From positions 4,496,001 through 4,560,000 of the forward strand of contig NZ_CP065546.1 of assembly GCF_015999545.1 (NCBI RefSeq): a stretch of 64,000 bases of DNA, given 5' to 3'. The notes beneath the pieces are model-generated. The model searched no databases. It was given only the letters and a program-made list of their open reading frames with translations, and was not told the origin of the DNA. This document shows positions 3,981 through 25,005 of the stretch, in pieces. Numbering within the stretch: position 1 is the stretch's first letter; each line of letters begins with the position of its first letter. Source of the DNA: Lysinibacillus sp. JNUCC-52. GTDB taxonomy: Bacteria > Bacillota > Bacilli > Bacillales_A > Planococcaceae. The position numbers were made by a program, and so were the translations under genes.

Positions 3981-4016
3981 AAATGTTCAGAGAGAAAGGA
4001 AAGAAGGAGGAATTTG

Positions 4017-4133
4017 ATGCACCTTGTTATACGTGGTGTTCTAGAAAAAGTACAAGGTGGGAATACGTTACAATCTAAACTGACAGGACAAGACTACATT
4101 GTTAAGGGGGGGTTACAAGATGAGTTATTTTAG
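4017..4133 (+). CDS. 38-residue ORF, possible toxin-tail remnant
   Basis: A short ORF (MHLVIRGVLEKVQGG...) with an excellent GAAGGAGG six bases before its ATG. Its stop at 4131-4133 lies inside the next gene, which starts at 4120, so the two would be translationally coupled. I recognise no family. Because the same stretch is also open in a second frame that continues from within the 3' end of the preceding immunity gene, it may be the surviving end of a deleted toxin gene instead of a functional protein. The ribosome binding site is the main argument that it is translated. Confidence 0.35.
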   Translation: MHLVIRGVLEKVQGGNTLQSKLTGQDYIVKGGLQDELF

Positions 4134-5640: not shown

Positions 5641-8517
5641 TTGAATAAAAAATTATTTATCACAGTAGCAGCTATTCCTGCAGTTCTTATTGTCCCAACA
5701 ATTGCGGGAGCGGCGGAATCAGAAGTGACAGTGACAGGTCAAAATATGGTGAATGAAGTTTTAAAAGCTTCAATAGAAAACTTACCAGCCAATACAATTG
5801 TTAAAGGTTACCAATGGTATTATGTTGAAAAGACTTCGGGCGAAAATGGAACGACTAATGTTACAAATATACCGATTTCTGGTGCAACTACTTCATCATT
5901 CACAGTACCAGTAGATGCTGCAGGGAAAACAATTTTTGTAGAAGCGATCACAACGACAGATAATAGATATAAAAGTGCAACACGAACTATAAATACACTA
6001 CAACTTGCGATTACAAAACCAGAATTTTTAATTGCTTCAAAATATATCGTACCTGGCGAAGAAGTAAAAGTGACAGTCGATGTTACTGATAGTGCAGGAG
6101 CAAAATTACAAAGTAGTCAAATTACATATAGCTACCAATGGTTTTATAAAGTTGGTGATTCTTTCACAATTATTGATGGAGCAACTAGCGGTACATATAC
6201 AGTTCCAAAAAATGCATTAGAAGAAAATATAAAAGATATTATGGTTAGGGTAAAAGCAAAAGTTGGTCCTGCAATTGTAGAATCAGATTTTTCTGATGAG
6301 ATTACTGTATCCAATGAACCAACTAACACAATGATTAATGAGATTAAAACGTTGCTTAAAAATGACCATCAATATAATATCTCAAGTCTAGCTTCATTTA
6401 AAGCGGATGTTACAGCGTTAGAGGCGAAGTACCAGGCCTTAACAGCACCTGCAAAGGCCAATGTGACAAATTATGATGTTTTAAAGCGAGCTATAGCTGA
6501 TATAGAGACATTGAGTAAGTTAAATGAGAAAGTAGATAAAGTGAGTGAGGTTGAAGAAAAGAACCTATCACAATATTTAAAAGAAATTGAAGAGGCTTAT
6601 GATAAGTTGGATTTATTACAACGCAGCTTAGATATCAATGATGCTTTATATAATAGTATTAAAACTATATTGAAAAATCCAACTGATATCGATGAATTTA
6701 AGGAAGTTAGACGATTAAATCAGGAAATTGTGGCATTATTAGCATATGAAAATTCCCTTGTGAAATATGTACCAACTAACATTAAAGCATTACAAACAGC
6801 AGTGGAAGCAATAGAAAAAGATATAGCCAAATTATCTCAAAATTATCGTTCAGCTGTTCAAAATCAAACCATTTTAAGTGATGCGAAGCAGGATATTAAA
6901 AAGGTTGAGCAATTTATTAAACTATTTGATAAGCTGTCACCCAATAATACACCTAGCAAGCAAGTGACGACAGCAAAATCAATACGTACAGCTTATGAAA
7001 AGCTAACATATAAACAATTACAGTTAGTACCAGCCAATTATGTCACGACATTACTTGAAGCGGAAAACGCAGAAGACAGTCAAATTGATAGATTAAATGC
7101 AGAAATCGACACCTACGTTGGTGATGCAGAAGACATGTACCCAATCGATCCGTCCGTACATTCTTGGCAAAGTCATGTTACGAATGTAAACCGAATTATT
7201 AATGAATATAAAGGGCTAACGAAAACTTCTGCTGCAAAAATTATTGGTTATGACCGCATTGTTACGTTGCAGAAGGATTTAAAAACAGCTGAAAAAGTAA
7301 TAAAAGAAATGGATGCTTATAAAAAGCTTTCCGAAGTTTCTGGTGTTGCCGAAAACAAGCTTAATTCAAGCTATACTAGTACGTTGAAAGCTTATAATAA
7401 GTTAACTAGCTTGCAACAATCACTCGTTTATAGTGCAGATGATTTTTTATTAAATTCGCCTAATGTTACGGTTGATGGAAATGGTAAGGTGCCTGCTGAT
7501 AAGGATGCTGCAGAAGCTTTAAAAGCAAACGTTGCAAAGCTTGCTGACGTTACAAGCTTTACATTTGCCCAATTTGAATCGGCTGTCAATGCAGCGACAG
7601 TGACATATAAGAGTCTATCTTCGCCAGCACGAAAGTATGTCACAAACTATTATTTATTAACTGCTGCTAGCAAAGATCTTTCTGGAGTTAAGTCATTCCA
7701 TAAAAAAGTTCAAACAGCACGAGAAGAAACAGATGTTACAAAACAAGCAAAAAAAATTCAAACCGTACAAACTGCTTACGCTAAACTCCCTGCCAATCAG
7801 CAGCATTTAGCGAAACAGCAATACGAAGATTTACTTAACAATCGCTTAGTGGATGGTAATGCACCAGACATAGTTGCTTTGAATAATACAATTGCGACTA
7901 TTATCTCAAATGATATGTATTCCGTTACAAAAGAGAAAATAATGGAGCTTTCCGCACAATATAATAAGTTAAGCGCTAATGATAAAAAACGTATTACGAA
8001 TGCTTCGATTTTAACTGCGGCAGTTTCTGACGTGAAAAAGGTTGAGACCTTCCTAAAGCAGTATGAAAAATCATTTATTAGTAATCCAACAACAGTGATT
8101 AAAGCTTTTGCAAAGCTATCTTCCAAACAAATGAGTTTAGTTAGCTCAGAAATCCGACAAGCTATTATTGAGAAGGAACAAGGACAGCAGCAATCGAATG
8201 AAATTGCTTTGAAATTAATTGAATCCATTAATTCGTTGCTTATTCAAGGCGAATATATTGATGATTTAGAAACGAAAGTAAAAGAAATTCGTGCAACATA
8301 TGACGCTCTAGGTACTTCTGAAAAAAGTATTGTGAAAAATTATTCAAAACTGACACAAGCAGAGAGTGACTTGAAAAAAGTTGCAGATGTTCATGCGCTC
8401 TATGTACCTGCTACAGAAGGCAACGAAGCGGCTCGTAAAGCATGGCAAAATGCCTATGCCAAGCTTTCAAAGAAATTAGAAATCCTTTATAATAAAATGT
8501 ATACAACTGATAAATAA
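5641..8517 (+). CDS. Secreted surface protein with two Ig-like domains and helical repeats
   Basis: A 958-residue exported protein. The start is the TTG at 5641, seven bases after GGAGG; the ATG at 5620 lies upstream of that site. The start gives a signal peptide (MNKKLFITVAAIPAVLIVP, cleavage near AGAA/E). Residues about 25-220 hold two beta-rich modules with YQWYYV and YQWFYK, typical of bacterial Ig-like/S-layer-associated folds. The rest, about residues 235-950, is made of repeated 70-100 residue helical units of the form '...Y..L....K..V.NY..L..A..D++KV..F' (for example VTNYDVLKRA, VTNYYLLTAA, ITNASILTAA, VKNYSKLTQA). There is no SLH domain, LPXTG motif or C-terminal anchor. Likely a secreted or non-covalently wall-associated protein; ligand unknown. 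Confidence 0.75.
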   Translation: MNKKLFITVAAIPAVLIVPTIAGAAESEVTVTGQNMVNEVLKASIENLPANTIVKGYQWYYVEKTSGENGTTNVTNIPISGATTSSFTVPVDAAGKTIFVEAITTTDNRYKSATRTINTLQLAITKPEFLIASKYIVPGEEVKVTVDVTDSAGAKLQSSQITYSYQWFYKVGDSFTIIDGATSGTYTVPKNALEENIKDIMVRVKAKVGPAIVESDFSDEITVSNEPTNTMINEIKTLLKNDHQYNISSLASFKADVTALEAKYQALTAPAKANVTNYDVLKRAIADIETLSKLNEKVDKVSEVEEKNLSQYLKEIEEAYDKLDLLQRSLDINDALYNSIKTILKNPTDIDEFKEVRRLNQEIVALLAYENSLVKYVPTNIKALQTAVEAIEKDIAKLSQNYRSAVQNQTILSDAKQDIKKVEQFIKLFDKLSPNNTPSKQVTTAKSIRTAYEKLTYKQLQLVPANYVTTLLEAENAEDSQIDRLNAEIDTYVGDAEDMYPIDPSVHSWQSHVTNVNRIINEYKGLTKTSAAKIIGYDRIVTLQKDLKTAEKVIKEMDAYKKLSEVSGVAENKLNSSYTSTLKAYNKLTSLQQSLVYSADDFLLNSPNVTVDGNGKVPADKDAAEALKANVAKLADVTSFTFAQFESAVNAATVTYKSLSSPARKYVTNYYLLTAASKDLSGVKSFHKKVQTAREETDVTKQAKKIQTVQTAYAKLPANQQHLAKQQYEDLLNNRLVDGNAPDIVALNNTIATIISNDMYSVTKEKIMELSAQYNKLSANDKKRITNASILTAAVSDVKKVETFLKQYEKSFISNPTTVIKAFAKLSSKQMSLVSSEIRQAIIEKEQGQQQSNEIALKLIESINSLLIQGEYIDDLETKVKEIRATYDALGTSEKSIVKNYSKLTQAESDLKKVADVHALYVPATEGNEAARKAWQNAYAKLSKKLEILYNKMYTTDK

Positions 8518-13131: not shown

Positions 13132-13225
13132 ATGAAAAAGGAGTCTTCGTAGATGAACTATGAGGGCTCTATTTTTCCTAGTTAGAAAAAATGATGGCAT
13201 TCATCTAAGAGAGGAGAATAGTATA

Positions 13226-14209
13226 ATGCTTACCAATCATACTAACAACGATTACGATAATCCGCATCAACTTCTTGTAGCTGAGTGGGTAAAGGAGTTT
13301 CGACCATTTGCACAAGAGGGTAAATGTGCAAGCTATATTCCAGCATTAGCTCAAAAAGATCCTCATCAATTGGCCATTTCAATTATCGGACCAAATAATG
13401 ACGAAATCAATGGAGGGGAGACAACTGAACTTTTTACGCTTCAAAGTGTTTCGAAAGTTGTAACATTTATTTTAGCGTGTATGGATCGAGGGTTGCCTTA
13501 TGTGTTAGAGCGTGTAGATGTGGAGCCTACAGGTGATACTTTCAATTCAATTATTCGTCTGGAAAGTCATCAGCCTGGAAAACCGTTTAATCCGATGATT
13601 AATGCAGGAGCCATTACAGTTTCCTCGATGCTTGCAGGTAATTCCCCGCAGGAGAAAGTTTCAAAAATCCTCTATTTTTTAGAGAAAATTGTTGGGAAGA
13701 AATTAAAGGTAAATGAAGAAGTTTTTCAATCTGAATGGCACACCGCCAATCGCAATCGGTCATTAGCGTATTATTTAATGGATTCGGGCTTTTTAGATTG
13801 CCCTGTAGAAGAGGCATTGGAAGTGTATTTGAAGCAATGTGCAATTGAAGTAAATGTTTCGGATTTAGCGATGATCGGTTTAATCATTGCCAATGATGGC
13901 TATCATCCACTATTACAAACACAGCTGTTTCCTAAGCAGGTGGCAAAACTAGCGAAGGCATTGATGGTGACATGCGGTATGTATAATGCATCAGGTAAAT
14001 TCGCTGCATTTATTGGATTACCCGCTAAAAGCGGTGTCTCGGGCGCCATTGTTGCGGCAGTTCCAAGTCACGCAAGCTTAGGTTCACCTTTCCCTGCTGG
14101 TTGTGGTATTGGCATTTATGGACCTGCTATAGATGAAATCGGCAATAGTGTCGCAGGAGTAAAATTACTAAAGCATGTGGCAGCTGAGTGGGATATGAAT
14201 ATTTTTTAA
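13226..14209 (+). CDS. glsA: Glutaminase
   Basis: A 327-residue enzyme converting glutamine to glutamate and ammonia. The ATG at 13226 follows GAGAGGAG; an upstream in-frame start at 13160 is rejected because it has no binding site and adds 22 atypical residues. The family's serine-lysine catalytic motif is seen in LQSVSKV, followed by FNPMINAGAI, the ENRN-equivalent region HTANRNRSLAYYL, and the C-terminal GLPAKSGVSGAI signature. The whole length matches bacterial GlsA (about 305-330). It is the last gene of the transporter/amidohydrolase group and is followed by a terminator. Confidence 0.92.
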   Translation: MLTNHTNNDYDNPHQLLVAEWVKEFRPFAQEGKCASYIPALAQKDPHQLAISIIGPNNDEINGGETTELFTLQSVSKVVTFILACMDRGLPYVLERVDVEPTGDTFNSIIRLESHQPGKPFNPMINAGAITVSSMLAGNSPQEKVSKILYFLEKIVGKKLKVNEEVFQSEWHTANRNRSLAYYLMDSGFLDCPVEEALEVYLKQCAIEVNVSDLAMIGLIIANDGYHPLLQTQLFPKQVAKLAKALMVTCGMYNASGKFAAFIGLPAKSGVSGAIVAAVPSHASLGSPFPAGCGIGIYGPAIDEIGNSVAGVKLLKHVAAEWDMNIF

Positions 14210-14220
14210 TAAGGTAAACA

Positions 14221-14264
14221 AATAGCGTAGATAAGTACAGAGACTTACTTACGCTATTCTTTTA
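14221..14264 (+). terminator. Terminator after glsA
   Basis: AATAGCGTA pairs with TACGCTATT across a 20-base loop and is followed by CTTTTATT. It lies between convergent genes and could also serve the minus-strand exporter gene. Confidence 0.65.
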
Positions 14265-14371
14265 TTAATTTAATAAATATTAATTGCAAGTGAAGACTAG
14301 TCGAAATTAAAAAGTGTATTCATTCATATAGAATTGGATTTCTCTTTGCTAGTTTGGAAAAAGGACTTAAG

Positions 14372-15616
14372 CTATGACATCTTTTCTAAAGAAACATTCG
14401 ATTTTTTGAAAAATAAGAGATAGAAACCAAACGTAACAGTGATAATTCCTGTTATAATGATTAAATTTTCTACGTCATCATATATCATAGGTATTAACAA
14501 ACATGTAACTATAGCAAAAGACGAAACTGTATTAATAACAGAAGTCACTTTGCCAATATGGTGAAAATCATAAAAATGATAAATCATTTTTCCATAAACT
14601 GTTCCTGACATACCAATTAATAAAAATGTTAATGCAAAGAGTGCGGTTTTTATGGCTATACTATCAATGAAAGCTATCAGTGTAATAGAAGCGCCAGAAA
14701 CCAAATAATCTATCATGAAAAAGTTTTTAAAAGGCATTTTAATACGGTTTGAGAGAAAAGCTCCAACAAGCTCGGACCCTCTCTGGATAGCTAAAAGGAC
14801 ACCTAGATATTCAACGCCAATATTTAGTATTACTAGATAAGCACCGATAATACGCATGACCATGGTTGTAAGACCGCTTAAGATACCTTCCATTACAACT
14901 ATTCGTGACGGGGTTTTTTCTTTCCAAAAATATTTAAAAGCATACAAAATATTATTTTTAAAATTAGGTTTGTCTTGAATTTGATTATTATTGTTTGGAT
15001 GATATACAATATTTTTTACGTAAATTTTCAAAAATAATGCTATACATAAGAAAAAAGTAAACATGTCAATGAGTAGTATACTAATTACAGATATATATAT
15101 AAGAATCACTGAAGATAGGAAATTAGATATTATATCAACTGTATTATTGGTAATATTCATGACATAAACAGATTTTTCAATATCTGTTTTTTTGAATCGT
15201 AGTATTTCAGGAATATAACTGGATTGAACTGGATAAATCAATGTATTCGCAAATGAAAATATAAAATGACATATGAAAATTAAGAGGATATCTAATCTGA
15301 AGTATACTGTGCATAATATGCCTGTAATAGAGAATAATTGTACAATTTCTAAAGAGATTAATAGGCTTTTTTTATTTCTACAGTTATCTATTAAAGTTCC
15401 AAAGGCAAAGTTAATTAAGGAGGGTAAAAAGGCGATTAATCCGATGAGTGCTAAAGAATCTGCACCTAGATTGTATATAGAGATAGTTATATAGGCTAAT
15501 ACAACAGTATATAAGCTATCTCCAAAATTTGTTATCACTCTACCGGATATAAAGTAAATAAAATTTTTATTTTTTCTTAAGGTCATATTTATATACATTC
15601 CAATTAAATAAATCAA
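14372..15616 (-). CDS. MFS exporter, MccC-like, of a microcin C-like cluster
   Basis: A 414-residue protein with about 12 membrane spans (GRVITNFGDSLYTVVLAYI near the N-terminus, GSELVGAFLSNR in the middle). It starts at a TTG nine bases after AGAGG, inside the 3' end of the adenylating-enzyme gene (about 50 bases overlap); ATG codons at 15598 and 15586 are alternatives. In microcin C clusters the third gene, mccC, encodes an MFS pump that exports the peptide-nucleotide and gives partial self-immunity. Position, overlap and family all fit that role here, but MFS sequence alone does not reveal substrate. Composition is very AT-rich, like the rest of the cluster. Confidence 0.75.
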   Translation of the reverse strand: MIYLIGMYINMTLRKNKNFIYFISGRVITNFGDSLYTVVLAYITISIYNLGADSLALIGLIAFLPSLINFAFGTLIDNCRNKKSLLISLEIVQLFSITGILCTVYFRLDILLIFICHFIFSFANTLIYPVQSSYIPEILRFKKTDIEKSVYVMNITNNTVDIISNFLSSVILIYISVISILLIDMFTFFLCIALFLKIYVKNIVYHPNNNNQIQDKPNFKNNILYAFKYFWKEKTPSRIVVMEGILSGLTTMVMRIIGAYLVILNIGVEYLGVLLAIQRGSELVGAFLSNRIKMPFKNFFMIDYLVSGASITLIAFIDSIAIKTALFALTFLLIGMSGTVYGKMIYHFYDFHHIGKVTSVINTVSSFAIVTCLLIPMIYDDVENLIIITGIITVTFGFYLLFFKKSNVSLEKMS

Positions 15617-16556
15617 TTTGAATTGCCTCTGGTTTATAATTTAGTTGTGTAATAACGCTGAAAGCTTGATAAGAGATTAATCCTGCAGCCATATAAGTTA
15701 CTGGTGCTATAACACTTGTAGAGAATGTAGTGTTTCCCAAAAGTTGTTCTCTTGGAGCACCTTGCTCATCATACAATTCAGAGCTTGTTATCGTTAAATT
15801 TGGATTCATACAAAATGTGTTGATAACTGTAGAAGCATATGAACCTGAAATAAAAGGTTTATTAAACTCTATTGATAAATCATCAAACCATACGACAATT
15901 TTGTATTTTGGCGTATCTGCACAACATATAGAAATATCAAAGTCATATTTTTGGAAAATATTCTTTAAATCATTTCTTGTAGCTAAATATTTATTTAATT
16001 TATTCACAATTATTTTTGAATCAATTTTTTTTATATATTTTTCAACGATGTCTACTTTATTTTTCCCTATGTCCTCCTCGAAATATGTTCCCTGTCTCGT
16101 TAAATTTGTTTCATCTATTTGATCATTATCAATGATAGTGAATGTTTGAATACCAAGTCTAGCTAAGATTTCACATACATTGGCACCAATCCCACCTAAA
16201 CCTACGATCAAAACATGTCCTTTATTTAATTTTCTTTGATAAATCGAAGGGTCAGTATTATTTGAAATATCCATCCATTCGAAGAAATTTATGTTGCGTG
16301 AATATTTATATTGTTTATCATATTCATTTATAGTAAGTAGACCTAAATCTTTTAAAACCTTAACCTTATTATTAAATTCTTCTGTGCTTATTGATAATTG
16401 ATCACGCTTTTTCTCGCCATTTAATACTTTTAAAATATCAATATTTTGTTCGTTTTTTTCTATTGACCTTTCTATTCCATCTTGACCAAAACCGAAGATT
16501 ATTTTTTCGCCTACAATTAAAGGTTGTAAAGTCCTTTTTATTTTTAATAGAGTCAT
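15567..16556 (-). CDS. MccB-like E1-type adenylating enzyme
   Basis: A 329-residue ThiF/MoeB/E1-superfamily protein. The ATG at 16556 is eight bases after GGAGG; a longer frame to 16634 has no site. Residues about 1-100 form a small winged-helix-like 'peptide clamp' domain and the rest an adenylation domain. VLIVGLGGIGANVCEILARLG is the nucleotide-binding loop, followed by IDNDQIDETNLTRQ and DIGKNKV. These segments, and the KYSRNINFF linker, closely resemble E. coli MccB (RYSRN, GCGGIGN, IDNDQIENTNLTRQ, DVGKNK), which adenylates the C-terminal Asn of the MccA heptapeptide. The two CxxC zinc pairs of MccB are missing. It sits between a 10-residue ORF and an MFS exporter, as in mccABC. A ThiF/MoeB housekeeping role is unlikely given the clamp domain and context. 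Confidence 0.8.
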   Translation of the reverse strand: MTLLKIKRTLQPLIVGEKIIFGFGQDGIERSIEKNEQNIDILKVLNGEKKRDQLSISTEEFNNKVKVLKDLGLLTINEYDKQYKYSRNINFFEWMDISNNTDPSIYQRKLNKGHVLIVGLGGIGANVCEILARLGIQTFTIIDNDQIDETNLTRQGTYFEEDIGKNKVDIVEKYIKKIDSKIIVNKLNKYLATRNDLKNIFQKYDFDISICCADTPKYKIVVWFDDLSIEFNKPFISGSYASTVINTFCMNPNLTITSSELYDEQGAPREQLLGNTTFSTSVIAPVTYMAAGLISYQAFSVITQLNYKPEAIQIDLFNWNVYKYDLKKK

Positions 16557-16576
16557 CGAAATATTCCTCCGTTTAA

Positions 16577-16619
16577 GAATGAAAACAAAACAGAAAGAAT
16601 ATAAATCCCTCCTGTTTTG
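16577..16619 (-). terminator. Weak terminator between the peptide gene and the MccB-like gene
   Basis: On the minus strand CAAAACAG and CTGTTTTG pair across an 18-base loop and are followed by TTTTCATTC. An imperfect terminator here would let most transcripts carry only the peptide gene, with some read-through into the enzyme gene, the arrangement described for E. coli mccA-mccB. Confidence 0.45.
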
Positions 16620-16637
16620 CTTTATTGGAATCAAATT

Positions 16638-16680
16638 GCTAATATTAACAATTTTGATTTATATAATTGTTAATATTAGC
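16638..16680 (-). other. 16-bp perfect hairpin joined to the peptide stop codon
   Basis: GCTAATATTAACAATT and AATTGTTAATATTAGC pair perfectly around an 11-base loop. On the minus strand the stem begins in the last sense codon (CGC) and includes the TAA stop of the 10-residue ORF. Ribosomes finishing the peptide would therefore cover the base of the stem. Confidence 0.75.
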
Positions 16681-16708
16681 GGTCTCCATTACGAAATGCT
16701 GGTAGCAT
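16676..16708 (-). CDS. Putative MccA-like precursor peptide, MLPAFRNGDR
   Basis: A 10-codon ORF preceded by GGGGGTG with a nine-base gap to ATG, the strongest ribosome binding site in this region. It is the first ORF of the transcript that continues into the MccB-like and MccC-like genes. The first seven residues, MLPAFRN, have the size and C-terminal Asn of known MccA heptapeptides (MRTGNAN in E. coli; from memory MKLSYRN in Helicobacter and MHRIMKN in Lactobacillus). Here the frame continues for Gly-Asp-Arg before TAA. A single change of GGA to TGA would end it at Asn7. It may be a precursor needing trimming, a stop-loss variant, or an enzyme substrate of a different kind. No other small ORF nearby has a comparable binding site. 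Confidence 0.6.
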   Translation of the reverse strand: MLPAFRNGDR

Positions 16709-16740
16709 AAAAAATCACCCCCAACTAATTTCTTAGTGAC

Positions 16741-16770
16741 ATTATAAAAAAAATAGCTGAAAATTCGCAA
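16741..16770 (-). promoter_or_regulatory. Promoter of the microcin C-like cluster
   Basis: On the minus strand TTGCGA, an 18-base spacer and TATAAT, ending 33 bases before the peptide's ATG. The -10 is a perfect consensus. Confidence 0.55.
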
Positions 16771-16794
16771 TAAAAAATAAATGAAAATGCGCAA
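16745..16794 (-). repeat. Tandem direct repeat at the cluster promoter
   Basis: Two adjacent near-identical units on the minus strand: TTGCGCATTTTCATTTATTT... and TTGCGAATTTTCAGCTATTT.... The second copy supplies the -35 element. It could be a binding site for an activator or repressor, or a local duplication. Confidence 0.5.
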
Positions 16795-17043
16795 TTTTTT
16801 CTCCCTATTATTCAGTCTAAATATATAGTAAAAATTTTTTATATTAGTAAACAATAAGTATGTGTGAGGAGAGACTGTTGTTGAATTGTTATCACAACTA
16901 TATCCTGACAACTAGATTAGTATTGCACTAAATTGAAGATACAGAGTTAAATGACAGTAAATAGAGAAGGGGTTATGGCTGTTAGAGTAATATCAGTGCT
17001 ACAGCTACACATTGTAGCGCTAGATAATTGGGGAACTGTAATA
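16795..17043. other. Gene-free interval upstream of the microcin C-like cluster
   Basis: No gene with a credible start is seen on either strand. The interval separates the divergent-looking cluster promoter from the terminator of the permease gene at 17044-17081. Confidence 0.5.
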
Positions 17044-17081
17044 ATGAAAGCAAAGACGCAATGGTTAGATTGCGTCTTTGC
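17044..17081 (-). terminator. Terminator of the permease gene
   Basis: GCAAAGACGCAAT pairs with ATTGCGTCTTTGC across six bases; on the minus strand it is followed by a T-rich CTTTCATTAT. Confidence 0.75.
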
Positions 17082-17093
17082 TGTGGATGTGGT

Positions 17094-18443
17094 TTATTGT
17101 TGGCGATTTTTGCGTTTGTATAGAATGAAAAGACCGATAAACCAGATAGGTGTTAGTAAAAGAGCCGTTCTTGTTTCTTCGGAAATTAACATAACAACTA
17201 ATAAAAACGCGAAGAAAGCGAGTACTAAATAGTTCACAAATGGTGTTAATGGTGCTTTGAAAATTGACGCTTCATGTAGGGCGCGATTTTTACGTTTATA
17301 AATGATATGAGAGATTAAAATAATACTCCATACCCAAATAAAACAAATTGCACTAATTGTTGTCACGACGCTAAAGGCGTTTTCTGGCATGAGCTTACTT
17401 AGTAATGCGCCCACTGATACAACGATAGCAGAAATGGTAAGTGCATTACTTGGTACACTATTTTTATTTAGCTTTGCAAATGAAGCGGATGCTTGTTTAT
17501 TGCGACCAAGATTATACAGCATGCGACTTGTCGAAAATAAACCACTATTGCCTGCTGATGCGGCAGATGTCAATACGACAAAATTAATAATACCTGCTGC
17601 AATAGGTATACCAGCTAATGTAAAAACTTGTACGAAGGGACTGCTTGTTCCAGACATTTCATACCAAGGGTTGATGCATAAGATGATTACTAATGCCCCT
17701 ACATAAAACAATAAAATTCGGAGTGGAATTTTATTGATTGCAGATGGAATGTTTTTTTGAGGATCAGCGGTTTCAGCAGCAGAAACACCAACTAATTCTA
17801 CCCCAACAAAAGCGAAGACAACCATTTGGAATGCCATTAGGAAGCCATATATACCGTTAGGGAAGAGCCCACCATGTGCCCAGAGGTTTTCCACGGATAC
17901 TGTTCCAGAGCTTGTTTGGAATCCAGTGAATAGCATGAATAATCCAATAATTATAAGCGCAACAATTGTTACCACTTTTATAAGAGCAAACCAAAATTCG
18001 AGTTCCCCAAATAGTTTTACAGTCAATAAATTTAAAAATAATAAAAGGACTAAACAGCCAATTGCAGGCACCCATTGCGGGATATTAAGCCAATATTGTA
18101 TGTAGACACCGACGGCAATAATATCAGCCATTGCAGTCATAATCCAGCAAAACCAATAGGTCCAGCCAGTGACATATCCTGCCCAAGAGCCGATGTACTC
18201 TGTAGCGAAATCTGTAAATGACGTATAGCCAGCATTCGATAATAACAGTTCTCCAAGCGCTCGCATAACGAAAAATAAAGCAGTGCCGACGATAAGATAG
18301 GCTAAAATAATAGATGGTCCTGCTAAAGCAATCGCTTTACCTGCTCCTAAAAATAAACCTGTACCAATTGTACCGCCAATCGCAATAAGTTGCACATGGC
18401 GATTTTTTAATTCACGTTTTAATTGTTGTTGTTCCACGTTCAT
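17094..18443 (-). CDS. Amino-acid permease, CycA-type (glycine/D-alanine/D-serine)
   Basis: A 449-residue APC-superfamily permease with about 12 membrane spans. HVQLIAIGGTIGTGLFLGAG is the helix-1 substrate loop of the AAT family; YWFCWIMTAMADIIAVGVY in helix 3 is of the CycA/YtnA type that carries glycine, D-alanine or D-serine. GGGGG lies too close to ATG 18443 and seven bases before a GTG at 18437, so translation may begin two codons later. A glycine riboswitch and a terminator lie in its leader, which independently supports glycine (or alanine) as substrate. It is a single-gene transcript. Confidence 0.85.
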   Translation of the reverse strand: MNVEQQQLKRELKNRHVQLIAIGGTIGTGLFLGAGKAIALAGPSIILAYLIVGTALFFVMRALGELLLSNAGYTSFTDFATEYIGSWAGYVTGWTYWFCWIMTAMADIIAVGVYIQYWLNIPQWVPAIGCLVLLLFLNLLTVKLFGELEFWFALIKVVTIVALIIIGLFMLFTGFQTSSGTVSVENLWAHGGLFPNGIYGFLMAFQMVVFAFVGVELVGVSAAETADPQKNIPSAINKIPLRILLFYVGALVIILCINPWYEMSGTSSPFVQVFTLAGIPIAAGIINFVVLTSAASAGNSGLFSTSRMLYNLGRNKQASASFAKLNKNSVPSNALTISAIVVSVGALLSKLMPENAFSVVTTISAICFIWVWSIILISHIIYKRKNRALHEASIFKAPLTPFVNYLVLAFFAFLLVVMLISEETRTALLLTPIWFIGLFILYKRKNRQQ

Positions 18444-18475
18444 TCCCCCATAAGATTCGTAGAAGCTGTGACTGG

Positions 18476-18509
18476 AAAATAAAAAGAGACTAGTTGCGAC
18501 ACTAGTCTC
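18476..18509 (-). terminator. Riboswitch-controlled terminator in the permease leader
   Basis: On the minus strand GAGACTAGT pairs with ACTAGTCTC around a six-base loop, followed by TTTTTATTTT, between the glycine riboswitch and the permease start codon. This is the likely expression platform. Confidence 0.85.
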
Positions 18510-18609
18510 GTAAACGTCAGAATAACAATTACCATGTTCGAAAGTTCGGTTAGTTTAAAATAAATTCAACATTCGTGTGGTATAGCTTTCGTGATGAAAG
18601 TTTATATTA

Positions 18610-18701
18610 CTCCTCTGTCCTTTTGCCTGAGATAGTGAACCCTTCGGCGACGCAAATTGCGCTCTCTCCAGAAATGCTCCTGCTATAGTTTAATCCATAG
18701 C
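18610..18701 (-). promoter_or_regulatory. Single-aptamer glycine riboswitch
   Basis: On the minus strand the core reads TTTCTGGAGAGAGCGC, then CGCCGAAGG, then TCTCAGGCAAAAGGACAGAG, the conserved elements of the gcvT/glycine aptamer. The P1 stem pairs TTTCTG with CAGAGG. Upstream, GCTAT ... ATAGC (18682-18701) forms a small hairpin like the 'ghost' second-aptamer stem that accompanies singleton glycine aptamers. It senses glycine and controls the terminator at 18476-18509. Whether glycine turns the permease on or off cannot be decided by eye. Confidence 0.9.
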
Positions 18702-19072
18702 ATTCATAGCTTTAATCTATACATTATTTTAAGATATTATTTATCCTATCAATGCCTAGCAATTAATTCAAGGGAAAATTTCAGTAGTTTTCATCAAAAA
18801 AGAAGAATTAAGTTTATGCTGATAAATTTGTTACGAAAGTTAGTTATTTTGGACATACTGTTTTTTGTAATGGGGAAGGGTATAGCAAGTATGGAGGGGG
18901 CAGAAAATTCATATTTACGCCAAAAATCTCTTTTTGCTATATGGACGGGACACTGCATTAGAGCAGTTTAACATTCTACTATTTATTTTGTGATAAAGAA
19001 AATGAGAAAGCTAAACGACATGGTTAGTCGTTAGACAACTACTATTATATAGAAGAAACTCTGGATATTAGC
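18702..19072. other. Gene-free interval
   Basis: No supported gene. An open frame on the plus strand (105 codons ending at 18971) overlaps the riboswitch and lacks a ribosome binding site. The promoter for the permease transcript should lie just above 18701 on the minus strand; no clear consensus pair was identified. Confidence 0.5.
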
Positions 19073-19114
19073 AAAAAGAATCCATTACCAATGCAATTGG
19101 AATGGATTCTTTTT
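19073..19114. terminator. Bidirectional terminator downstream of yqhL
   Basis: AAAAAGAATCCATT and AATGGATTCTTTTT pair around a 14-base loop, with A run on one side and T run on the other. Confidence 0.8.
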
Positions 19115-19218
19115 GTGCGAAAATAAGTATTGCTGTCGATTTATACAACATACTTGCTTTACGGAGAATTGTACTATTGAAAATAGTCACTTTTACCTTA
19201 TAAAATTCGCAGTGATTA

Positions 19219-19602
19219 TTATTTTTTTGTTTTAATTTTACCAGTCCAATTACGGAAGCCGCCATCAAGCTGGTAGATTTGATTGTAACCACGTTTTTTT
19301 AGGAAAAGAGCAGCACGCGCACTACGACCTGTATTTTGACAGTATAAGTATACTGGTAAATCTGGGCGGATTTCTTTATGACGTTGACGTAATGCTGTAG
19401 AAGGAACGTTACGAGCACCAAGAATATGACCTGCATCAAATTCTTTTTGTTCACGCACATCGATTAGTTGCGCTTTACGGTAGCCTTCAATAAATTGTTC
19501 TTGTGTTAAGTTGGTTACGGCTTTTTTTAGACGCATTGCATTAATAGCGATATATGCAATTAGAACTACTAAAATAACACCAATTGTGATAAGTATATCC
19601 AA
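19219..19602 (-). CDS. yqhL: Membrane-anchored rhodanese-like protein YqhL
   Basis: A 127-residue protein: an N-terminal membrane helix (ILITIGVILVVLIAYIAINA) followed by a single rhodanese domain. LIDVREQKEFDAGHILGARN and the active-site loop YCQNTGRSA, with the catalytic Cys, are intact, and LDGGFRNW closes the fold. Rhodaneses carry persulfide sulfur; the physiological acceptor of YqhL is unknown. In B. subtilis yqhL is likewise divergent from yqhM (lipM), as here. Confidence 0.85.
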   Translation of the reverse strand: MDILITIGVILVVLIAYIAINAMRLKKAVTNLTQEQFIEGYRKAQLIDVREQKEFDAGHILGARNVPSTALRQRHKEIRPDLPVYLYCQNTGRSARAALFLKKRGYNQIYQLDGGFRNWTGKIKTKK

Positions 19603-19726
19603 TTTCTTCTTACCCCTTTCTATCTTCTTTATTATTATAAAAGATGCGCTAGCGATAGTCCAATGAGTTTGATAAAATTAACTAGATTGTGGCTAGAAAT
19701 GATCTATAGATGTAGGAGATGACGTA

Positions 19727-20557
19727 ATGACAACTTGGTATTTTCTAAATTCAGGAAAATGTAGTCCTTCTTTTAATATGGCACTAGATGAGGCATTGCT
19801 TGATTGGCATAGTGAGGGATTAATTCCTCCTGTCATTCGTTTTTACGAGTGGGAGCCAGCGACATTGTCGATTGGTTATTTTCAACAAGCGAAAAGAGAT
19901 ATTAATTTAGATGCGTTACGTGAACAAGGAATAGGGTTTGTTCGTCGACCAACAGGCGGTCGAGCAGTTTTACATGAACATGAATTGACATATAGCGTAA
20001 TTGTTACTGAAAGCTATCCTAATATGCCTGAATCAGTAACAGAGGCGTATCGCGTACTAAGTGAAGGGATATTAGAGGGCTTTCATAATTTAGGAATGGA
20101 TGCGTATTTTAGCGTACCTGATACAGAAGAAAAGAAGGCAGATTTGAAACAGCCAAAAAGTGCCGTATGCTTTGATGCACCAAGTTGGTATGAGCTTGTC
20201 GTAGAAGGCAAAAAAATAGCAGGTAGTGCACAAACACGTCAAAAAGGTGTTATTTTACAGCATGGTGCGATTTTACTTGATTTAGATGAAGAGAAATTAT
20301 TATCTGTATTTAATTTTTCTAGTGAAGAAGCAAAAGAGCGTATGCGAAAAAAACTACCAGAGAAGGCGGTTGCTATTAATAGTCTTGTTCAAAAACCTGT
20401 TTCTATTGAACAATGTGTCACTGCTTTCCGAGATGGCTTTGCAAAATCGTTGCAAATTGAATTAAAAGCATTTACACTTTCTGAGGAGCAATTAAATTAT
20501 GTGCGTGATTTAGAGGAAAAAAAATATGCTCATGATGATTGGAACTTTAAAAAGTAA
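19727..20557 (+). CDS. lipM: Octanoyl-[acyl carrier protein]:GcvH octanoyltransferase LipM
   Basis: A 276-residue lipoate-pathway enzyme that moves octanoate from ACP to the GcvH lipoyl domain. The biotin/lipoate ligase-fold motifs [19 protein letters not shown] and [20 protein letters not shown] are present, and [16 protein letters not shown] supplies the catalytic Cys that forms the acyl-enzyme in this family. Length matches B. subtilis LipM (about 278). Monocistronic, head-to-head with yqhL, with the ATG preceded by TAGGAGATG. Confidence 0.9.
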
Positions 20558-20681
20558 AATATGGTATAAGAAAAATATTTTTTATCGTTTAAACCTTGTA
20601 ATGGCAAGCAGTAACCATTCTACTTGAAATTGCAAGAGTTGAATTAATAAACTATATATAGTATCTTTTTAAAAGCAACAT

Positions 20682-20719
20682 ACACAATATGTAGTGTTTA
20701 CCAACACATGATATTGTGT
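20682..20719 (+). promoter_or_regulatory. Paired NrdR boxes upstream of nrdJ
   Basis: ACACAATATGTAGTGT (20682-20697) and ACACATGATATTGTGT (20704-20719) both match the NrdR consensus (ACACwAtATmTwGTGT). Their starts are 22 bases apart, about two helical turns, so two NrdR units can bind on the same DNA face. NrdR represses ribonucleotide reductase genes in response to the dATP/ATP ratio. Confidence 0.85.
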
Positions 20720-20758
20720 ATTTATTATTGTAAGGCTTAAAATAAGGGAGGCAAAACG

Positions 20759-21550
20759 ATGGTACTCACAAATCATCAACCCGATGTAAACAAACAAATT
20801 GAACAGTTAAACAAAGATATTGAGCAATTCCCACAGGTTCACCCTGTTACGCCTGATATGCACATTACGCATACAGGTGTATCAAGACTTGTAATGATCG
20901 ATCGCTACTCGTTTAAAGATACGGAAAAGAAAACATTAAAAGCTGGTGATTTCGTCGTATTAACGGTGAAGGCAGATCCAAAATTCCCTGCTCGTGGTTT
21001 AGGAACAATACAACATATTGATATGTCTACAAAAACAGCAGACATTTTGATTGAGGAAGACTACCGTAGCGCATTAGATGATCCAAAAGAGCAAGAAACA
21101 GGTGTGATCACACGTTCAATTGACGTGCTAGAAAAGCCTCTTGAAATTTTTTATGAGCAAATCGCAAAACGAAATGCAACAGGGCTTGCTTCAGTTGAAA
21201 AAACAGCCGAAAAACGCCAAGAATGGTTTGAGAAATTTTATAAACAGCTTTTATCATTGAAATTTGTACCAGCTGGCCGTGTCATTTATGGAGCAGGTTC
21301 TGAAACAGATGTAACCTTCTTCAATTGCTATGTAATGCCGTTCGTTGCGGATTCACGCGAAGGGATTAGTGATCACCGTAAGCAAGTAATGGAAATTATG
21401 AGCCGTGGTGGTGGTGTAGGAACGAATGGTTCAACACTACGCCCTCGCAATACGTTAGCACGTGGTGTGAACGGTAAATCTTCAGGTTCCGTATCATGGC
21501 TAGATGACATTGCAAAACTGACTCACCTTGTCGAGCAAGGTGGATCCCGT
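20759..21550 (+). CDS. nrdJ: Class II ribonucleotide reductase NrdJ, exon 1
   Basis: First 264 codons of the B12-dependent ribonucleoside (di/tri)phosphate reductase; the protein continues at 22690 after removal of a group I intron, giving 856 residues. The ATG follows GGGAGG by seven bases. TFFNCYVMP holds the first redox Cys of the active site; MSRGGGVGTNGSTLRPR and NGKSSGSVSWLDDIAKL are part of the barrel. There is no N-terminal ATP-cone domain. Unspliced mRNA stops at the first intron codon (TAA), giving a truncated, inactive product. Two NrdR boxes lie upstream. Confidence 0.93.
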
Positions 21551-22689
21551 TAACCAAAACGGCGGGATTAAAATCTCGTGAATTGCTGGAACACCCTGAG
21601 AGCTTTTCTTGCTACAACGTAAACTGTGAAGTTAAACGTGAATGCTTAAAAAAAGAAAAGATTGGGCAATCAGCAGCGAAGCATCTGTGGAAATGCAGAT
21701 GAACGTTCAACGACTATTGAACCTTCCTAAACTTATATGCCACTTTGGAGGTGGGAGCATGGAAGAAGTAAATCGTAATGTACGGAGACGTCCTTACGAG
21801 GCGCGAGACAAAGAACGATTGATTAAAGAGATAATTGAGTTACATGAGCATGGAATGAGCCAAGTAGATATTGCGAAAACGCTTTGTATAGGAAGAGGAA
21901 CGATTCTTAGATGGAATAAAGAATTAGAACTTTTTAAACCGAGAACACCTGGTGAAGCTGGTAAGCTGAAAAATAAGAAATATCGTTATAATGAACACTA
22001 CTTTAAACAAGTAGATACAGCGAATAAGGCTTATTTAGTAGGTTATATTACAGGTGATGGAACGATTTTTGATCGTGGGAAATCTAAACGCCTTGTGTTA
22101 TCACTCGCAGAGCAAGATCGACAACTACTAGATGATATCGCTAAAGAATTATGTATGTTGGAAGCAATGAAATTCCGACCAAGCACAGCGCCAAATGAGC
22201 AAAATAAATATGCTTTACCAATCAATTCAACAGAAATGTGTAATGATTTAATTAAATTAGGGATTACACCACGAAAAACAGGTTTTGAAAGTTGGATTAA
22301 TTTTGGAAGAGAAGATTTACAGTGGGCGTATTTAAGAGGTTTTTTTGATGCAGATGGTCATATATCAAGTCGTGGAAGACTGGGGTTTACAGGAAATAGT
22401 CATATGCTCCTGTCATTGCTACAATTTCTTCATAATAACCAGCTAGCTTTATCAGTCCATAAACTTTATCCGAAACAAGGTTGTGTAGACTTATACATTA
22501 CTCGTAAAGATGATGTGAAAAAGATTGCGCAACAGTTATATAAGTATGGCTCTATACGACTCAATCGCAAATATGAAAAAATCAAATCCTTCTTTGATGA
22601 TATAGTCTGATCTTATGTGAAAGCATAAGAATGTGGCAGAAATGACCACATCATAAAAGTATTTTAATATACTTTTTTGTAACAAAAAG
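21551..22689 (+). mobile_element. Group I intron in nrdJ (1,139 bases)
   Basis: The reading frame of nrdJ resumes exactly when 21551-22689 is removed. P1 pairs exon bases 21544-21550 (ATCCCGT) with 21562-21568 (GCGGGAT), ending in the required U-G pair at the 5' splice site. The last intron base is G. P10 can form between ACG (21559-21561) and exon CGT (22690-22692). AATTGCTGGAA (21581) is the P/P4 segment, ATCAGCAGCGAAGC (about 21669) the Q segment, GACTAT (21712-21717) and ATAGTC (22602-22607) form P7. Three 3' hairpins follow (22612-22629, 22631-22651, 22654-22675). It encodes a LAGLIDADG endonuclease. Confidence 0.92.
21759..22610 (+). CDS. Intron-encoded LAGLIDADG homing endonuclease
   Basis: A 283-residue protein inside the nrdJ intron. 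I start it at the ATG at 21759, nine bases after TTGGAGGTGGG; the longer frame back to 21642 would read through the ribozyme core. Residues about 15-55 carry a helix-turn-helix (LIKEIIELHEHGMSQVDIA, IGRGTILRWNKE). Two LAGLIDADG-type helices follow, LVGYITGDG (about residue 95) and LRGFFDADG (about residue 200), each with the catalytic acidic residue, so it should act as a monomer. Its TGA stop lies within the S/P7 region of the ribozyme. It would cut intronless nrdJ alleles at the exon junction and may act as a maturase. Confidence 0.9.
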   Translation: MEEVNRNVRRRPYEARDKERLIKEIIELHEHGMSQVDIAKTLCIGRGTILRWNKELELFKPRTPGEAGKLKNKKYRYNEHYFKQVDTANKAYLVGYITGDGTIFDRGKSKRLVLSLAEQDRQLLDDIAKELCMLEAMKFRPSTAPNEQNKYALPINSTEMCNDLIKLGITPRKTGFESWINFGREDLQWAYLRGFFDADGHISSRGRLGFTGNSHMLLSLLQFLHNNQLALSVHKLYPKQGCVDLYITRKDDVKKIAQQLYKYGSIRLNRKYEKIKSFFDDIV

Positions 22690-24468
22690 CGTGGGGCACA
22701 AATGATTATGCTGGCAGATTGGCATCCTGATATCGTGGAATTTATTATTTCAAAAATGCAAAATCCACGTATTCTACGATACTTAATGGAAAATACAGCA
22801 GATGAGACGATTATTCGTCTAGCGAAAGAAAAATTAAACTTTAAGCCGCTTACAACGCAAGAAGAAGCGATGTATCAGGGCATTGTTAATTATAAAGGTA
22901 TAGAGGGATTAGGCGGATTCGACAGTGGAATTATCCGTGAAGCAGAAAATAAATTACGTGATGGTGGTACGTACACAGTTCATAACCCAGAGTTTTTAAC
23001 AGGTGCGAACATCTCTGTAACGTTAACAAAAGAATTTATGGCAGCTGTTGAAGCAGATGCTGACTTCGAGCTTCGTTTCCCAGCCGTTGAAGAATATTCA
23101 AAAGAAGAAATGGCTATATACAACAGTGAATGGCATAAAGTTGGAGATGTACGTGAATGGGAGAAGATGGGCTACAAAGTACGCACATATCGTACGATTA
23201 AGGCAAAAGAGCTTTGGAACCTCATCAACGTCTGTGCAACATACTCTGCAGAGCCAGGTATTTTCTTTATCGACAATGCTAACGATATGACAAATGCTAA
23301 AGCTTATGGTCAAAGTGTTGTAGCAACTAACCCATGTGGGGAACAACCACTAGCACCATATTCAGTTTGTAACTTAGCTGCTGTCAACTTAGCTCAGTTT
23401 GCGGATAAAGAACACCAAACAGTCGATTATGAAGCATTACGTGAAACAGTTCGTGTTGGTGTTCGTATGCAGGATAATGTTATTGATGCAACACCTTACT
23501 TCCTAGAAGAAAACCGAGTACAAGCTCTTGGTGAGCGCCGTGTCGGTTTAGGGGTAATGGGCTTAGCGGATTTACTTATTTATTGTGAAAAAGAATATGG
23601 CTCAGATGCGGGTAATGCACTTGTAGATGAAATCTTTAAAACAATTGCAGAAACGGCATATGAAGCTTCGACAGAGCTTGCAAAAGAACGTGGTAGCTTC
23701 CCATTCTTAGTTGGAGCGACAGAGGAAGAAACGGCCCGTTTACGCAAAGCGTTCACTGAAACAGGCTTCATGCAAAAAATGCCTGCACACATTAAAGAGC
23801 AAATTTTAGCAACAGGTATTCGTAACTCACATTTACTAACGGTTGCGCCAACTGGTTCTACTGGAACAATGGTAGGCGTAGCTACAGGTCTAGAACCGTA
23901 TTTCTCATTTACTTATTATCGTTCTGGCCGATTAGGTAAATTTATTGAAGTAAAAGCGGAAATTGTTCAAGAATACTTAGACCGCCATCCAGAAGCTTCA
24001 GAAGATAAATTGCCTGAATGGTTTGTTACGGCAATGGAATTAAAACCAGAAGCGCATGCAGATGTGCAATGCATTATTCAAAAATGGATTGACTCATCAA
24101 TTTCTAAAACAGTGAATGCTCCAAAAGGCTATACAGTTGAACAAGTAGAAAAAGTGTACGAGCGCTTATATAAAGGTGGCGCTAAAGGCGGGACGGTCTA
24201 TGTTGATGGTAGCCGTGATTCACAAGTGCTTACACTAAAAGCAGAAGAAAATGATATGGATCAGTTATCATTTGAAGAAGAATTAGTCGAAGAGCACACA
24301 AAACGTCCAGTTGTATTAGTTGATACGATTCAAGCGCTTGAGTCTACAACTGTAATTGGCTCGGATGTAGGAAACACATGCCCAGTATGTCGTAAAGGAA
24401 CAGTCGAAGAAATGGGTGGCTGTAACACATGTACAAACTGTGGTGCACAATTAAAATGCGGTTTGTAA
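22690..24468 (+). CDS. nrdJ: Class II ribonucleotide reductase NrdJ, exon 2
   Basis: Remaining 592 codons, beginning CGT-GGG-GCA-CAA directly after the intron (RGAQMIMLADWHPD). It carries the thiyl-radical Cys loop and catalytic Glu region NPCGEQPLAPYSVCNLAAVNL, the substrate phosphate loop PTGSTGTMVGVATGLEP and a C-terminal cysteine cluster, CPVCRK ... CNTCTNCGAQLKCGL, used for zinc binding and re-reduction. The insertion site follows GGSR, within a strongly conserved stretch. A start at the internal ATG 22702 is not expected to be used. A terminator follows at 24498. Confidence 0.93.
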   Translation, partial: RGAQMIMLADWHPDIVEFIISKMQNPRILRYLMENTADETIIRLAKEKLNFKPLTTQEEAMYQGIVNYKGIEGLGGFDSGIIREAENKLRDGGTYTVHNPEFLTGANISVTLTKEFMAAVEADADFELRFPAVEEYSKEEMAIYNSEWHKVGDVREWEKMGYKVRTYRTIKAKELWNLINVCATYSAEPGIFFIDNANDMTNAKAYGQSVVATNPCGEQPLAPYSVCNLAAVNLAQFADKEHQTVDYEALRETVRVGVRMQDNVIDATPYFLEENRVQALGERRVGLGVMGLADLLIYCEKEYGSDAGNALVDEIFKTIAETAYEASTELAKERGSFPFLVGATEEETARLRKAFTETGFMQKMPAHIKEQILATGIRNSHLLTVAPTGSTGTMVGVATGLEPYFSFTYYRSGRLGKFIEVKAEIVQEYLDRHPEASEDKLPEWFVTAMELKPEAHADVQCIIQKWIDSSISKTVNAPKGYTVEQVEKVYERLYKGGAKGGTVYVDGSRDSQVLTLKAEENDMDQLSFEEELVEEHTKRPVVLVDTIQALESTTVIGSDVGNTCPVCRKGTVEEMGGCNTCTNCGAQLKCGL

Positions 24469-24497
24469 ATTGAAGAATTGATATAAAAGCTTTGTGG

Positions 24498-24543
24498 AAT
24501 CATCTTACCTCTAAACATAATTAGGGGTGAGGTGATTTTTTTA
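24498..24543 (+). terminator. Terminator of nrdJ
   Basis: AATCATCTTACCTCTAA pairs with TTAGGGGTGAGGTGATT (several U-G pairs) across six bases, followed by TTTTTTT. Confidence 0.8.
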
Positions 24544-24612
24544 TTGGTAATTAATGTTATGATTATAGACAGAACTAAGAAACTAGGTTTCTACATAGTT
24601 GGGGGCGAAGAC

Positions 24613-25005
24613 ATGAAGCGTTCGTTGTGTAATATAACTAGGATAATGGGTATCGCATGCGCTATTTCAGCAATTTTTTATATTCGTAAGTGTATGTCTG
24701 GTAAAGCTCTCTTTGTTTCTAGTGGAATAAAAGTAGAGTACCCTCTTATTAATTTGGAAAACAGTCAGGTCACTGCTTATGTTACATATGATGGAAAGAC
24801 ATATATGCGTGTTCAATATAATGTATTAACAGAAGAAACAAAAGTCATTGGAAGTATAGAATCAATAAAATTAAATCGTTTGATAAAAAATAACATTACA
24901 TTAACCGATGCTGACTTTATAGAAATGATTCAAAGCTCAGCGCGATTTTTTGTTGAAAATGAAATTGCTCATCCTGACGAATTTTACAGACAAAACCCCT
25001 CATAA
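24613..25005 (+). CDS. Hypothetical membrane-anchored protein
   Basis: A 130-residue protein starting at the ATG seven bases after GGGGG; an earlier frame start at 24532 lies in the nrdJ terminator. One N-terminal hydrophobic segment (ITRIMGIACAISAIFYI) is followed by a hydrophilic, probably extracytoplasmic domain (AYVTYDGKTYMRVQYNVL). No family recognised. Followed by its own terminator at 25009-25041. Confidence 0.5.
   Translation: MKRSLCNITRIMGIACAISAIFYIRKCMSGKALFVSSGIKVEYPLINLENSQVTAYVTYDGKTYMRVQYNVLTEETKVIGSIESIKLNRLIKNNITLTDADFIEMIQSSARFFVENEIAHPDEFYRQNPS

What the first reader, a model, noticed from the sequence alone, without database searches (positions are those of the whole stretch)
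14372..16794. Minimal microcin C-like peptide-nucleotide cluster
Seen: a promoter, a 10-codon ORF with a very strong ribosome binding site, a perfect hairpin, a weak terminator, a gene for an MccB-like adenylating enzyme with a peptide-clamp N-terminus, and an overlapping MFS exporter gene, all on one strand. Known: mccA-mccB-mccC encodes the heptapeptide, the adenylating enzyme and the exporter of microcin C, a Trojan-horse inhibitor of aspartyl-tRNA synthetase. Inference: this strain makes a peptide-nucleotide antibiotic. No mccD/E/F homologue is in the window, so it would be a core (Helicobacter-like) version.
Basis: partly seen in the sequence, partly recalled or inferred. Interest (0 to 1): 0.92.

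Follow-up and report, generated by a model that had tools for sequence, protein, structure and literature searches.

The report
Peptide-modifying cassette with C-terminal arginine
A three-gene cassette in a soil-type bacterium encodes a ten-residue peptide, an enzyme related to the one that builds the antibiotic microcin C, and an export pump; the peptide ends in a conserved arginine motif instead of the asparagine that microcin C chemistry needs, so it is probably a sister kind of peptide product with untested chemistry.

Summary
In detail: on the minus strand, a 10-codon ORF (MLPAFRNGDR) with a strong ribosome-binding site, hairpins, a 329-aa MccB-like ThiF enzyme and an overlapping MFS exporter gene. 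The naming needs correcting. Same-clade operons were found in 2 other genomes of the genus, in Streptococcus, an Aerococcus MAG and Alloscardovia. Each of the 11 intact genomes found (7 distinct peptides) has a short ORF ending R-x-G-x-R-stop: FRNGDR, HRVGGR, HRLGGR, YRIGGR or YRVGQR. Shuffles reach this in 0-1 of 2000 per locus; none of 26 other ThiF-type loci tested has it. Microcin C precursors end in Asn, needed for the N-P bond; these end in Arg, and 5 of 7 have no Asn in the last six residues. The enzyme clade is well supported, apart from E. coli/H. pylori MccB (marginal test, p 0.046), and lacks their CxxC pairs; E. coli MccB is still its nearest solved relative by sequence. Best reading: a distinct minimal ThiF-type RiPP class whose enzyme adenylates a C-terminal Arg carboxylate; capture by an intramolecular nitrogen or a nucleotide is undecided. 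AspRS-targeting microcin C is not supported. A lactic-acid-bacteria ThiF survey that I could not read may already include this group.

The parts
16741..16770 (-). putative sigma-70-type promoter (TTGCGA-18-TATAAT) of the cassette
   Evidence: 10 of 12, best of the stretch; the overall count is not above shuffles; TATAAT region also present in G017 and in G029, which lacks the cassette genes at this place
16715..16722 (-). strong Shine-Dalgarno (GGGGGTGA) of the peptide ORF
   Evidence: kept in G017 and, as GGAGGTGA, in G007
16676..16708 (-). 10-codon precursor peptide ORF MLPAFRNGDR, C-terminal motif R-x-G-x-R
16638..16680 (-). perfect 16-bp inverted repeat overlapping the end of the peptide ORF; role unknown, not kept as such in G017 or G007
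16582..16623 (-). intergenic hairpin with U-rich 3' side, putative attenuator between peptide and enzyme genes
   Evidence: kept in G017 and, weaker, in G007
15567..16556 (-). MccB-like ThiF adenylyltransferase, 329 aa, ATG start behind GGAGG
14372..15586 (-). MFS exporter, 404 aa, overlapping the enzyme gene by 20 nt

Best explanation
A minimal, horizontally moving RiPP cassette of a class distinct from microcin C. Shown: a short ORF ending R-x-G-x-R is co-inherited with an MccB-like enzyme gene and an MFS gene. From established ThiF/MccB/E1 enzymology: the enzyme binds the peptide and uses ATP to adenylate its C-terminal carboxylate, here that of arginine. Inferred: the arginyl-adenylate is then captured. 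I put about 50% on one-ATP intramolecular capture with loss of water, by the guanidine of the conserved Arg at -5 (macrocycle, with Gly at -3 as the turn) or by the side chain of the last residue (six-membered ring; Gln in a related lineage could do the same), about 30% on a nucleotide adduct as in microcin C, and the rest on amidation or another intermolecular nucleophile. The whole peptide, too short for a separate leader in the 10-mers and with no protease gene recognised beside it, is probably the product. It is exported by the MFS protein, most likely as an antibacterial or signalling compound; the two streptococcal loci whose neighbours I scanned lie next to an Rgg gene or an HTH regulator gene with a Phr-like peptide.
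For: R-x-G-x-R-stop ORFs upstream of the enzyme in all 11 genomes with an intact copy found, 7 distinct peptides, lengths 10, 16 and 17; 0-1 of 2000 shuffles for each of nine loci; 0 of 26 other ThiF loci tested; the same kind of scan recovers MRTGNAN in E. coli and MKLSYRN in H. pylori. Only synonymous differences in FRNGDR among three congeners. Enzyme clade (with the degenerate L071 inside) at 100/99 and 100/98; L072/L073 as its sister at 96/97 in the 29-row tree (unresolved in the 43-row tree). L073 carries ...NRVGGQ-stop, a hairpin and an MFS gene. GxGGxG, NLTRQ, Lys167 and Asp214 are kept. Best solved-structure matches are E. coli MccB by sequence and, narrowly, by fold. Per PMC12150305 and PMC12250964, PaaA, GrcB, EnfB and IndF use adenylation for ring closure.
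Against: No chemistry was or could be tested. The very short precursor, MFS exporter and attenuator resemble microcin C more than IndF or EnfB, which have longer precursors. The test that the clade plus microcin C MccBs form one clade is only marginally rejected (p 0.046). Known spread is narrow: 3 of 261 family genomes, 7 of 284 streptococci, one of them partly deleted. The related L072 locus has a different short ORF and no MFS gene seen; L071 has no such peptide. The structure model is of modest confidence (mean pLDDT 64.6), so the peptide clamp is weakly supported.
Confidence: 0.72

Rival explanations
1. A true microcin C-type peptide nucleotide: MLPAFRNGDR is trimmed to MLPAFRN and the exposed Asn gets AMP or CMP through an N-P bond, giving an AspRS-targeting Trojan horse.
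For: MccB is the closest solved relative; operon layout as in mcc; MLPAFRN would be a heptapeptide ending in Asn; H. pylori MccA ends ...YRN.
Against: GDR-stop is kept in all three congeneric copies; peptides of the clade outside the genus have V, L or I in place of Asn; no protease gene in the cassette; the enzyme lies outside the E. coli/H. pylori group (joint clade rejected only marginally).
Confidence: 0.06
2. A nucleotide is attached to the C-terminal arginine (through its carboxylate or guanidine), giving a Trojan horse that mimics arginyl-AMP and would hit arginyl-tRNA synthetase.
For: Leaderless short peptide plus MFS exporter as in microcin C; E. coli MccB still O-adenylates a peptide whose last Asn is replaced by Gly (PMC13255007, passages), so C-terminal activation does not need Asn.
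Against: No immunity gene recognised in the cassette; a second argS is present in all 5 genomes of the genus examined, including 2 without the cassette, and the 2 streptococci with the cassette that were examined have one, so there is no cluster-linked resistant synthetase.
Confidence: 0.25
3. The peptide is a quorum-sensing signal and the enzyme matures it (for example by cyclisation), with no antibiotic role.
For: Rgg gene about 0.3 kb upstream of the peptide ORF in L039 (NCBIfam RGG_Cterm E 2e-62); an HTH regulator and a Phr-like 44-aa peptide ORF upstream in S. parasanguinis L037.
Against: The regulator and Phr-like peptide look like controllers of the cassette rather than its receptor (inference); in the window and G017 the neighbours are a glutaminase and a permease gene, and no regulator was recognised by eye in the ORF lists of Aerococcus L038 or Alloscardovia L042, which were not scanned.
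Confidence: 0.2
4. A ThiF/MoeB housekeeping enzyme with a chance ORF upstream.
For: Pfam ThiF domain. In the 43-row tree the genome's own L003 (258 aa, branch length 3.07) falls unresolved at the same basal fork (support 42/55).
Against: ThiF-type enzymes incl. the genome's own L002 form a separate group (100/100; 100/99); NCBIfam scores far below ThiF and MoeB cut-offs; peptide motif conserved beyond chance.
Confidence: 0.02

Closest known systems
Microcin C (mccA-mccB-mccC core; E. coli and H. pylori types)
   Same: Very short precursor ORF with strong SD, MccB-like enzyme overlapped or followed by an MFS gene; MccB is the nearest solved structure (86 of 310 aligned residues identical to the E. 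coli enzyme). A terminator between mccA and the other genes is reported for E. coli (PMC6495379, passage).
   Different: Precursor ends in Arg (R-x-G-x-R), not Asn; the two CxxC pairs of E. coli and H. pylori MccB are missing; separate, well-supported clade; exporter 15% identical to E. coli MccC.
IndF / ind cluster (S. pneumoniae, Trp-Ile indolylamide; PMC12150305)
   Same: ThiF-like RiPP enzyme that activates the precursor's C-terminal carboxylate; found in streptococci.
   Different: Precursor ...EDTTNWYFI with a leader and a peptidase gene; IndF (L106) falls elsewhere in the tree and is a long branch.
EnfB / enterofaecin, GrcB / GRC thiolactone (reviewed in PMC12250964)
   Same: C-terminal activation by ThiF-like enzymes in lactic acid bacteria; the enterofaecin cluster holds quorum-sensing-related regulators.
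   Different: Precursor C-termini WWIVI or ...Cys, longer precursors, other partner genes. Enzyme sequences of EnfB and GrcB themselves were not fetched.
PaaA / pantocin A
   Same: ThiF-like peptide modifier; 5ff5 is in the sequence and fold hit lists.
   Different: Acts on a Glu-Glu-Asn core inside a longer peptide (recalled); weaker match than MccB.

Membership tests
Microcin C family | Precursor peptide with C-terminal Asn (site of the N-P bond) | tested here: not met
   All 7 distinct clade peptides found end in Arg; PMC6495379 section 6: precursors were found beside most MccB homologues and all of them end in Asn.
Microcin C family | MccB-like ThiF adenylyltransferase | tested here: met
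   Pfam ThiF E 6e-39; PDB MccB E 5e-28 single sequence, 8e-34 profile.
Microcin C family | Enzyme inside the microcin C MccB clade | tested here: inconclusive
   Clade and the E. coli/H. pylori/Borrelia group each 100/99 and separate in the 29-row tree; holding them together gives p-AU 0.046. Only two enzymes with a recovered Asn-ending precursor were in the set.
Microcin C family | Very short precursor gene with strong SD upstream of the enzyme gene | tested here: met
   10 to 17 codons, SD-like sequence in every intact copy found; distance to the enzyme gene 79-125 nt, 382-394 nt in the L039/L041 type.
Microcin C family | MFS exporter gene directly behind the enzyme gene | tested here: met
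   P0002 and orthologues; the Aerococcus and Alloscardovia exporters gave no Pfam hit at E 0.001 but align with the others.
Microcin C family | Nucleotide joined through an N-P bond | not testable with these tools
   Needs enzyme assay and mass spectrometry.
ThiF/MoeB housekeeping adenylyltransferases | Clusters with ThiF/MoeB in a phylogeny | tested here: not met
   L002, L017, L018, L020 and S. saprophyticus ThiF form their own group (100/100); L003 of the same genome is unresolved at a 42/55 fork; scores far below the ThiF and MoeB NCBIfam cut-offs.
IndF (indolylamide) class | Precursor ending NWYFI and IndF-like enzyme | tested here: not met
   Peptides differ; IndF, found through its precursor, is outside the clade.
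EnfB and GrcB classes | Precursor ending WWIVI-like, or with C-terminal Cys | tested here: not met
   Clade peptides end R-x-G-x-R; trees with EnfB and GrcB themselves were not made.

The most novel reading that the evidence does not exclude
A new RiPP class in which an E1-like enzyme activates a C-terminal arginine and a guanidine nitrogen makes the new bond: an acylguanidine macrocycle between Arg at -5 and the C-terminus of R-x-G-x-R, or an arginine lactam or phosphoramidate that mimics arginyl-adenylate.
Probability: 0.35. Interest if true: 0.85.

Novelty: new variant of a known kind. Interest (0 to 1): 0.6.

Why it matters
The ThiF/E1 superfamily is being recognised as a source of diverse peptide chemistry, with only a handful of reactions known. 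This cassette offers one of the simplest systems possible (one 10-residue substrate, one enzyme, one pump) with a substrate end that none of the ThiF-type peptide modifiers described in the papers I read uses. It departs from the reported rule that MccB-like enzymes with very short precursors act on a C-terminal Asn, and one mass-spectrometry experiment would show the chemistry. Copies in streptococci (including a record titled S. pneumoniae 19F) and in Alloscardovia give it possible relevance to the human microbiota.
Full report
What is in the window. The window is part of a 4.68-Mb single-contig genome. Between a glutaminase gene (13160-14209, +) and an amino-acid permease gene (17094-18443, -) lies a minus-strand cassette: peptide ORF MLPAFRNGDR (16708-16676), two hairpins, a ThiF-family enzyme of 329 aa (16556-15567) and an overlapping MFS gene (15586-14372). 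Its enzyme and MFS genes have 28% G+C against 38% and 40% for the two flanking genes.

A mobile module. The orthologue in G017 sits between the same two neighbours, that in G007 at a different place. Of 32 genus genomes, 30 returned a glutaminase locus; in 25 of these 30 the permease gene was found beside it, 40-903 nt apart between aligned parts; the 5 without it within the fetched flank are G000, G017, G007, G013 and G010. In G029, whose glutaminase is 98% identical, similarity runs from the permease side to about position 16724, just before the peptide's ribosome-binding site, after which a different short reading frame follows. The close orthologue is in 3 of 261 genomes of the family, all three in this genus.

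The peptide is real and its end is the point. In the three congeners the last six residues FRNGDR are identical with synonymous differences at F, G and D, while the residues before (LPA or NPH) and the untranslated region vary. A pattern-based scan of one genome per species for 84,980 species returned six further operons of the same clade outside the genus: S. parasanguinis, three other Streptococcus records, an Aerococcus MAG and Alloscardovia omnicolens (44-48% identity). Each has a short ORF behind a ribosome-binding site upstream of the enzyme: MTVVAVQTFPGHRVGGR, MTAEVVNRPGYRIGGR, MSAVPYSFQGHRLGGR (two), MSAVPCSFQGHRLGGR, MFPTYRVGQR. Streptococcus as a genus: 7 of 284 species genomes have the enzyme; six have the peptide, one has a deletion that removes it together with the enzyme's start. 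Counting each genome once (loci that share contig length and place are taken as one genome), 11 intact genomes give 7 distinct peptides, all ending R-x-G-x-R. In dinucleotide shuffles of nine upstream regions such an ORF turned up in 0-1 of 2000 each; among 26 other ThiF-type loci tested, even without requiring a ribosome-binding site, none had one ending R-x-G-x-R or R-x-G-x-Q (a few fetched ThiF loci were not in that set). As positive controls, scans of this kind gave MRTGNAN for E. coli mcc and MKLSYRN for H. pylori. L073 (G1144), a more distant relative, has MDIQEVIEVHESLQNRVGGQ, a hairpin with a T run, an enzyme and an MFS gene; its start codon has only a weak ribosome-binding site, and the filtered scan missed it.

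The enzyme. By sequence its nearest solved relative is E. coli MccB; by fold MccB leads, with MoeB within one Z unit. The nine clade members share K7-T9-L10-Q11-P12, SRNINFFEW, GxGGxG, NLTRQ, Lys167, Asp214 and SYASTVIN. They lack the two CxxC pairs found in 24 of the 34 other rows of the tree set, including E. coli and H. pylori MccB; 2 rows have one pair and 8 none, among these L071-L073. In trees of 43 and 29 proteins the clade, with L071 inside, has 100/99 and 100/98 support, and E. coli, H. pylori and Borrelia enzymes form another group (97/89 and 100/99). L072/L073 join the clade at 96/97 in the 29-row tree and are unresolved in the 43-row tree. Holding clade and microcin C enzymes together costs 15.1 log-likelihood units, p-AU 0.046, which I treat as marginal. 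ThiF-type housekeeping enzymes and IndF lie elsewhere; L003 of the same genome is a long, unresolved branch. IndF was identified through its precursor ...EDTTNWYFI as described in PMC12150305 (parts 1 and 2 of 3 read). The exporters follow the enzymes: the window's exporter is 28-34% identical to those of the clade aligned and 15% to E. coli MccC. The AlphaFold model from seven sequences is modest (mean pLDDT 64.6): the core of the adenylation domain is modelled well, the last quarter poorly, and the N-terminal strands and helices are compatible with a peptide clamp, not proof of one.

How it most likely works. Established for MccB, GrcB, EnfB and IndF (PMC12250964, sections 7, 8, 17, 20 and 26 and passages; PMC12150305): the enzyme adenylates the C-terminal carboxylate of a bound peptide, and the products differ by which nucleophile captures it. 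By homology this should hold here; the carboxylate is that of arginine. Then either a nitrogen of the peptide closes a ring (the Arg at -5 is invariant and Gly at -3 would allow a turn; or the last residue's own side chain, Arg or, in L073, Gln) or a nucleotide is added. The first fits the ring closures described for PaaA, GrcB, EnfB and IndF, the second fits the leaderless short peptide and MFS exporter. I give about 50% and 30%. Regulation: an Rgg gene upstream in L039 (E 2e-62) and an HTH regulator plus a Phr-like 44-aa peptide ORF in S. parasanguinis suggest density control in streptococci; other streptococcal loci were not scanned for it. No immunity gene was recognised; argS copy number does not track the cassette.

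What is known. PMC6495379 (section 6 and passages read) reports that the precursors found beside most MccB homologues all end in Asn; this clade does not follow. ThiF-type RiPPs in lactic acid bacteria have been surveyed: PMC12250964 tells of eleven sequence clusters in Streptococcus and a figure of 8 groups with precursor logos, after its reference 22. I take that to be Wang et al. 2024 (title seen in reference lists), which is not held; the figures could not be seen. PMC12445099 (passages) reports ThiF or radical SAM genes in 11 of 21 regions around rgg genes in S. thermophilus. So the streptococcal group may be drawn somewhere already. In the listings of the paper searches, and in the passages read, I saw no description of an R-x-G-x-R precursor class or of a Lysinibacillus member; most listed papers were not opened. 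Hence 'new variant of a known kind', interest 0.6.

Noticed in passing
window 20759-24468 (+): Ribonucleotide reductase large subunit split into 20759-21553 and 22702-24468 with a LAGLIDADG-type reading frame (21642-22610) between; looks like an intron or intein with a homing endonuclease. Rfam gave no group I intron at the gathering score in 14000-25000.
   Followed up: partly
window 18605-18681 (-): Glycine riboswitch aptamer (Rfam RF00504, 50.8 bits) upstream of the amino-acid permease gene 17094-18443.
   Followed up: no
L031 (G064), about 8340-8490 on the minus strand: Another ThiF-type RiPP-like cluster in a family member: two identical 18-residue ORFs MRIVKVKPTTKRLLVNRS, each behind GGAGGTGATA, before a ThiF-like gene.
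   Followed up: no
L037, 5594-5728: Phr-like 44-residue peptide ORF MRSLFRKIATVLVIGL...EIDPGPANIIRR between an HTH regulator gene and the precursor ORF in S. parasanguinis.
   Followed up: partly
L071 (G975): Relative of the enzyme that lost the GxGGxG and NLTRQ motifs and lies beside an unrelated reading frame; perhaps a repurposed or decaying copy.
   Followed up: no
L102 (Borreliella garinii lp25 plasmid), 2483-4369: MccB-like enzyme gene followed by an MFS gene on a Borreliella plasmid, grouping with H. pylori MccB; the annotated enzyme is short (233 aa) and the scan found no Asn-ending precursor within 400 nt upstream.
   Followed up: no
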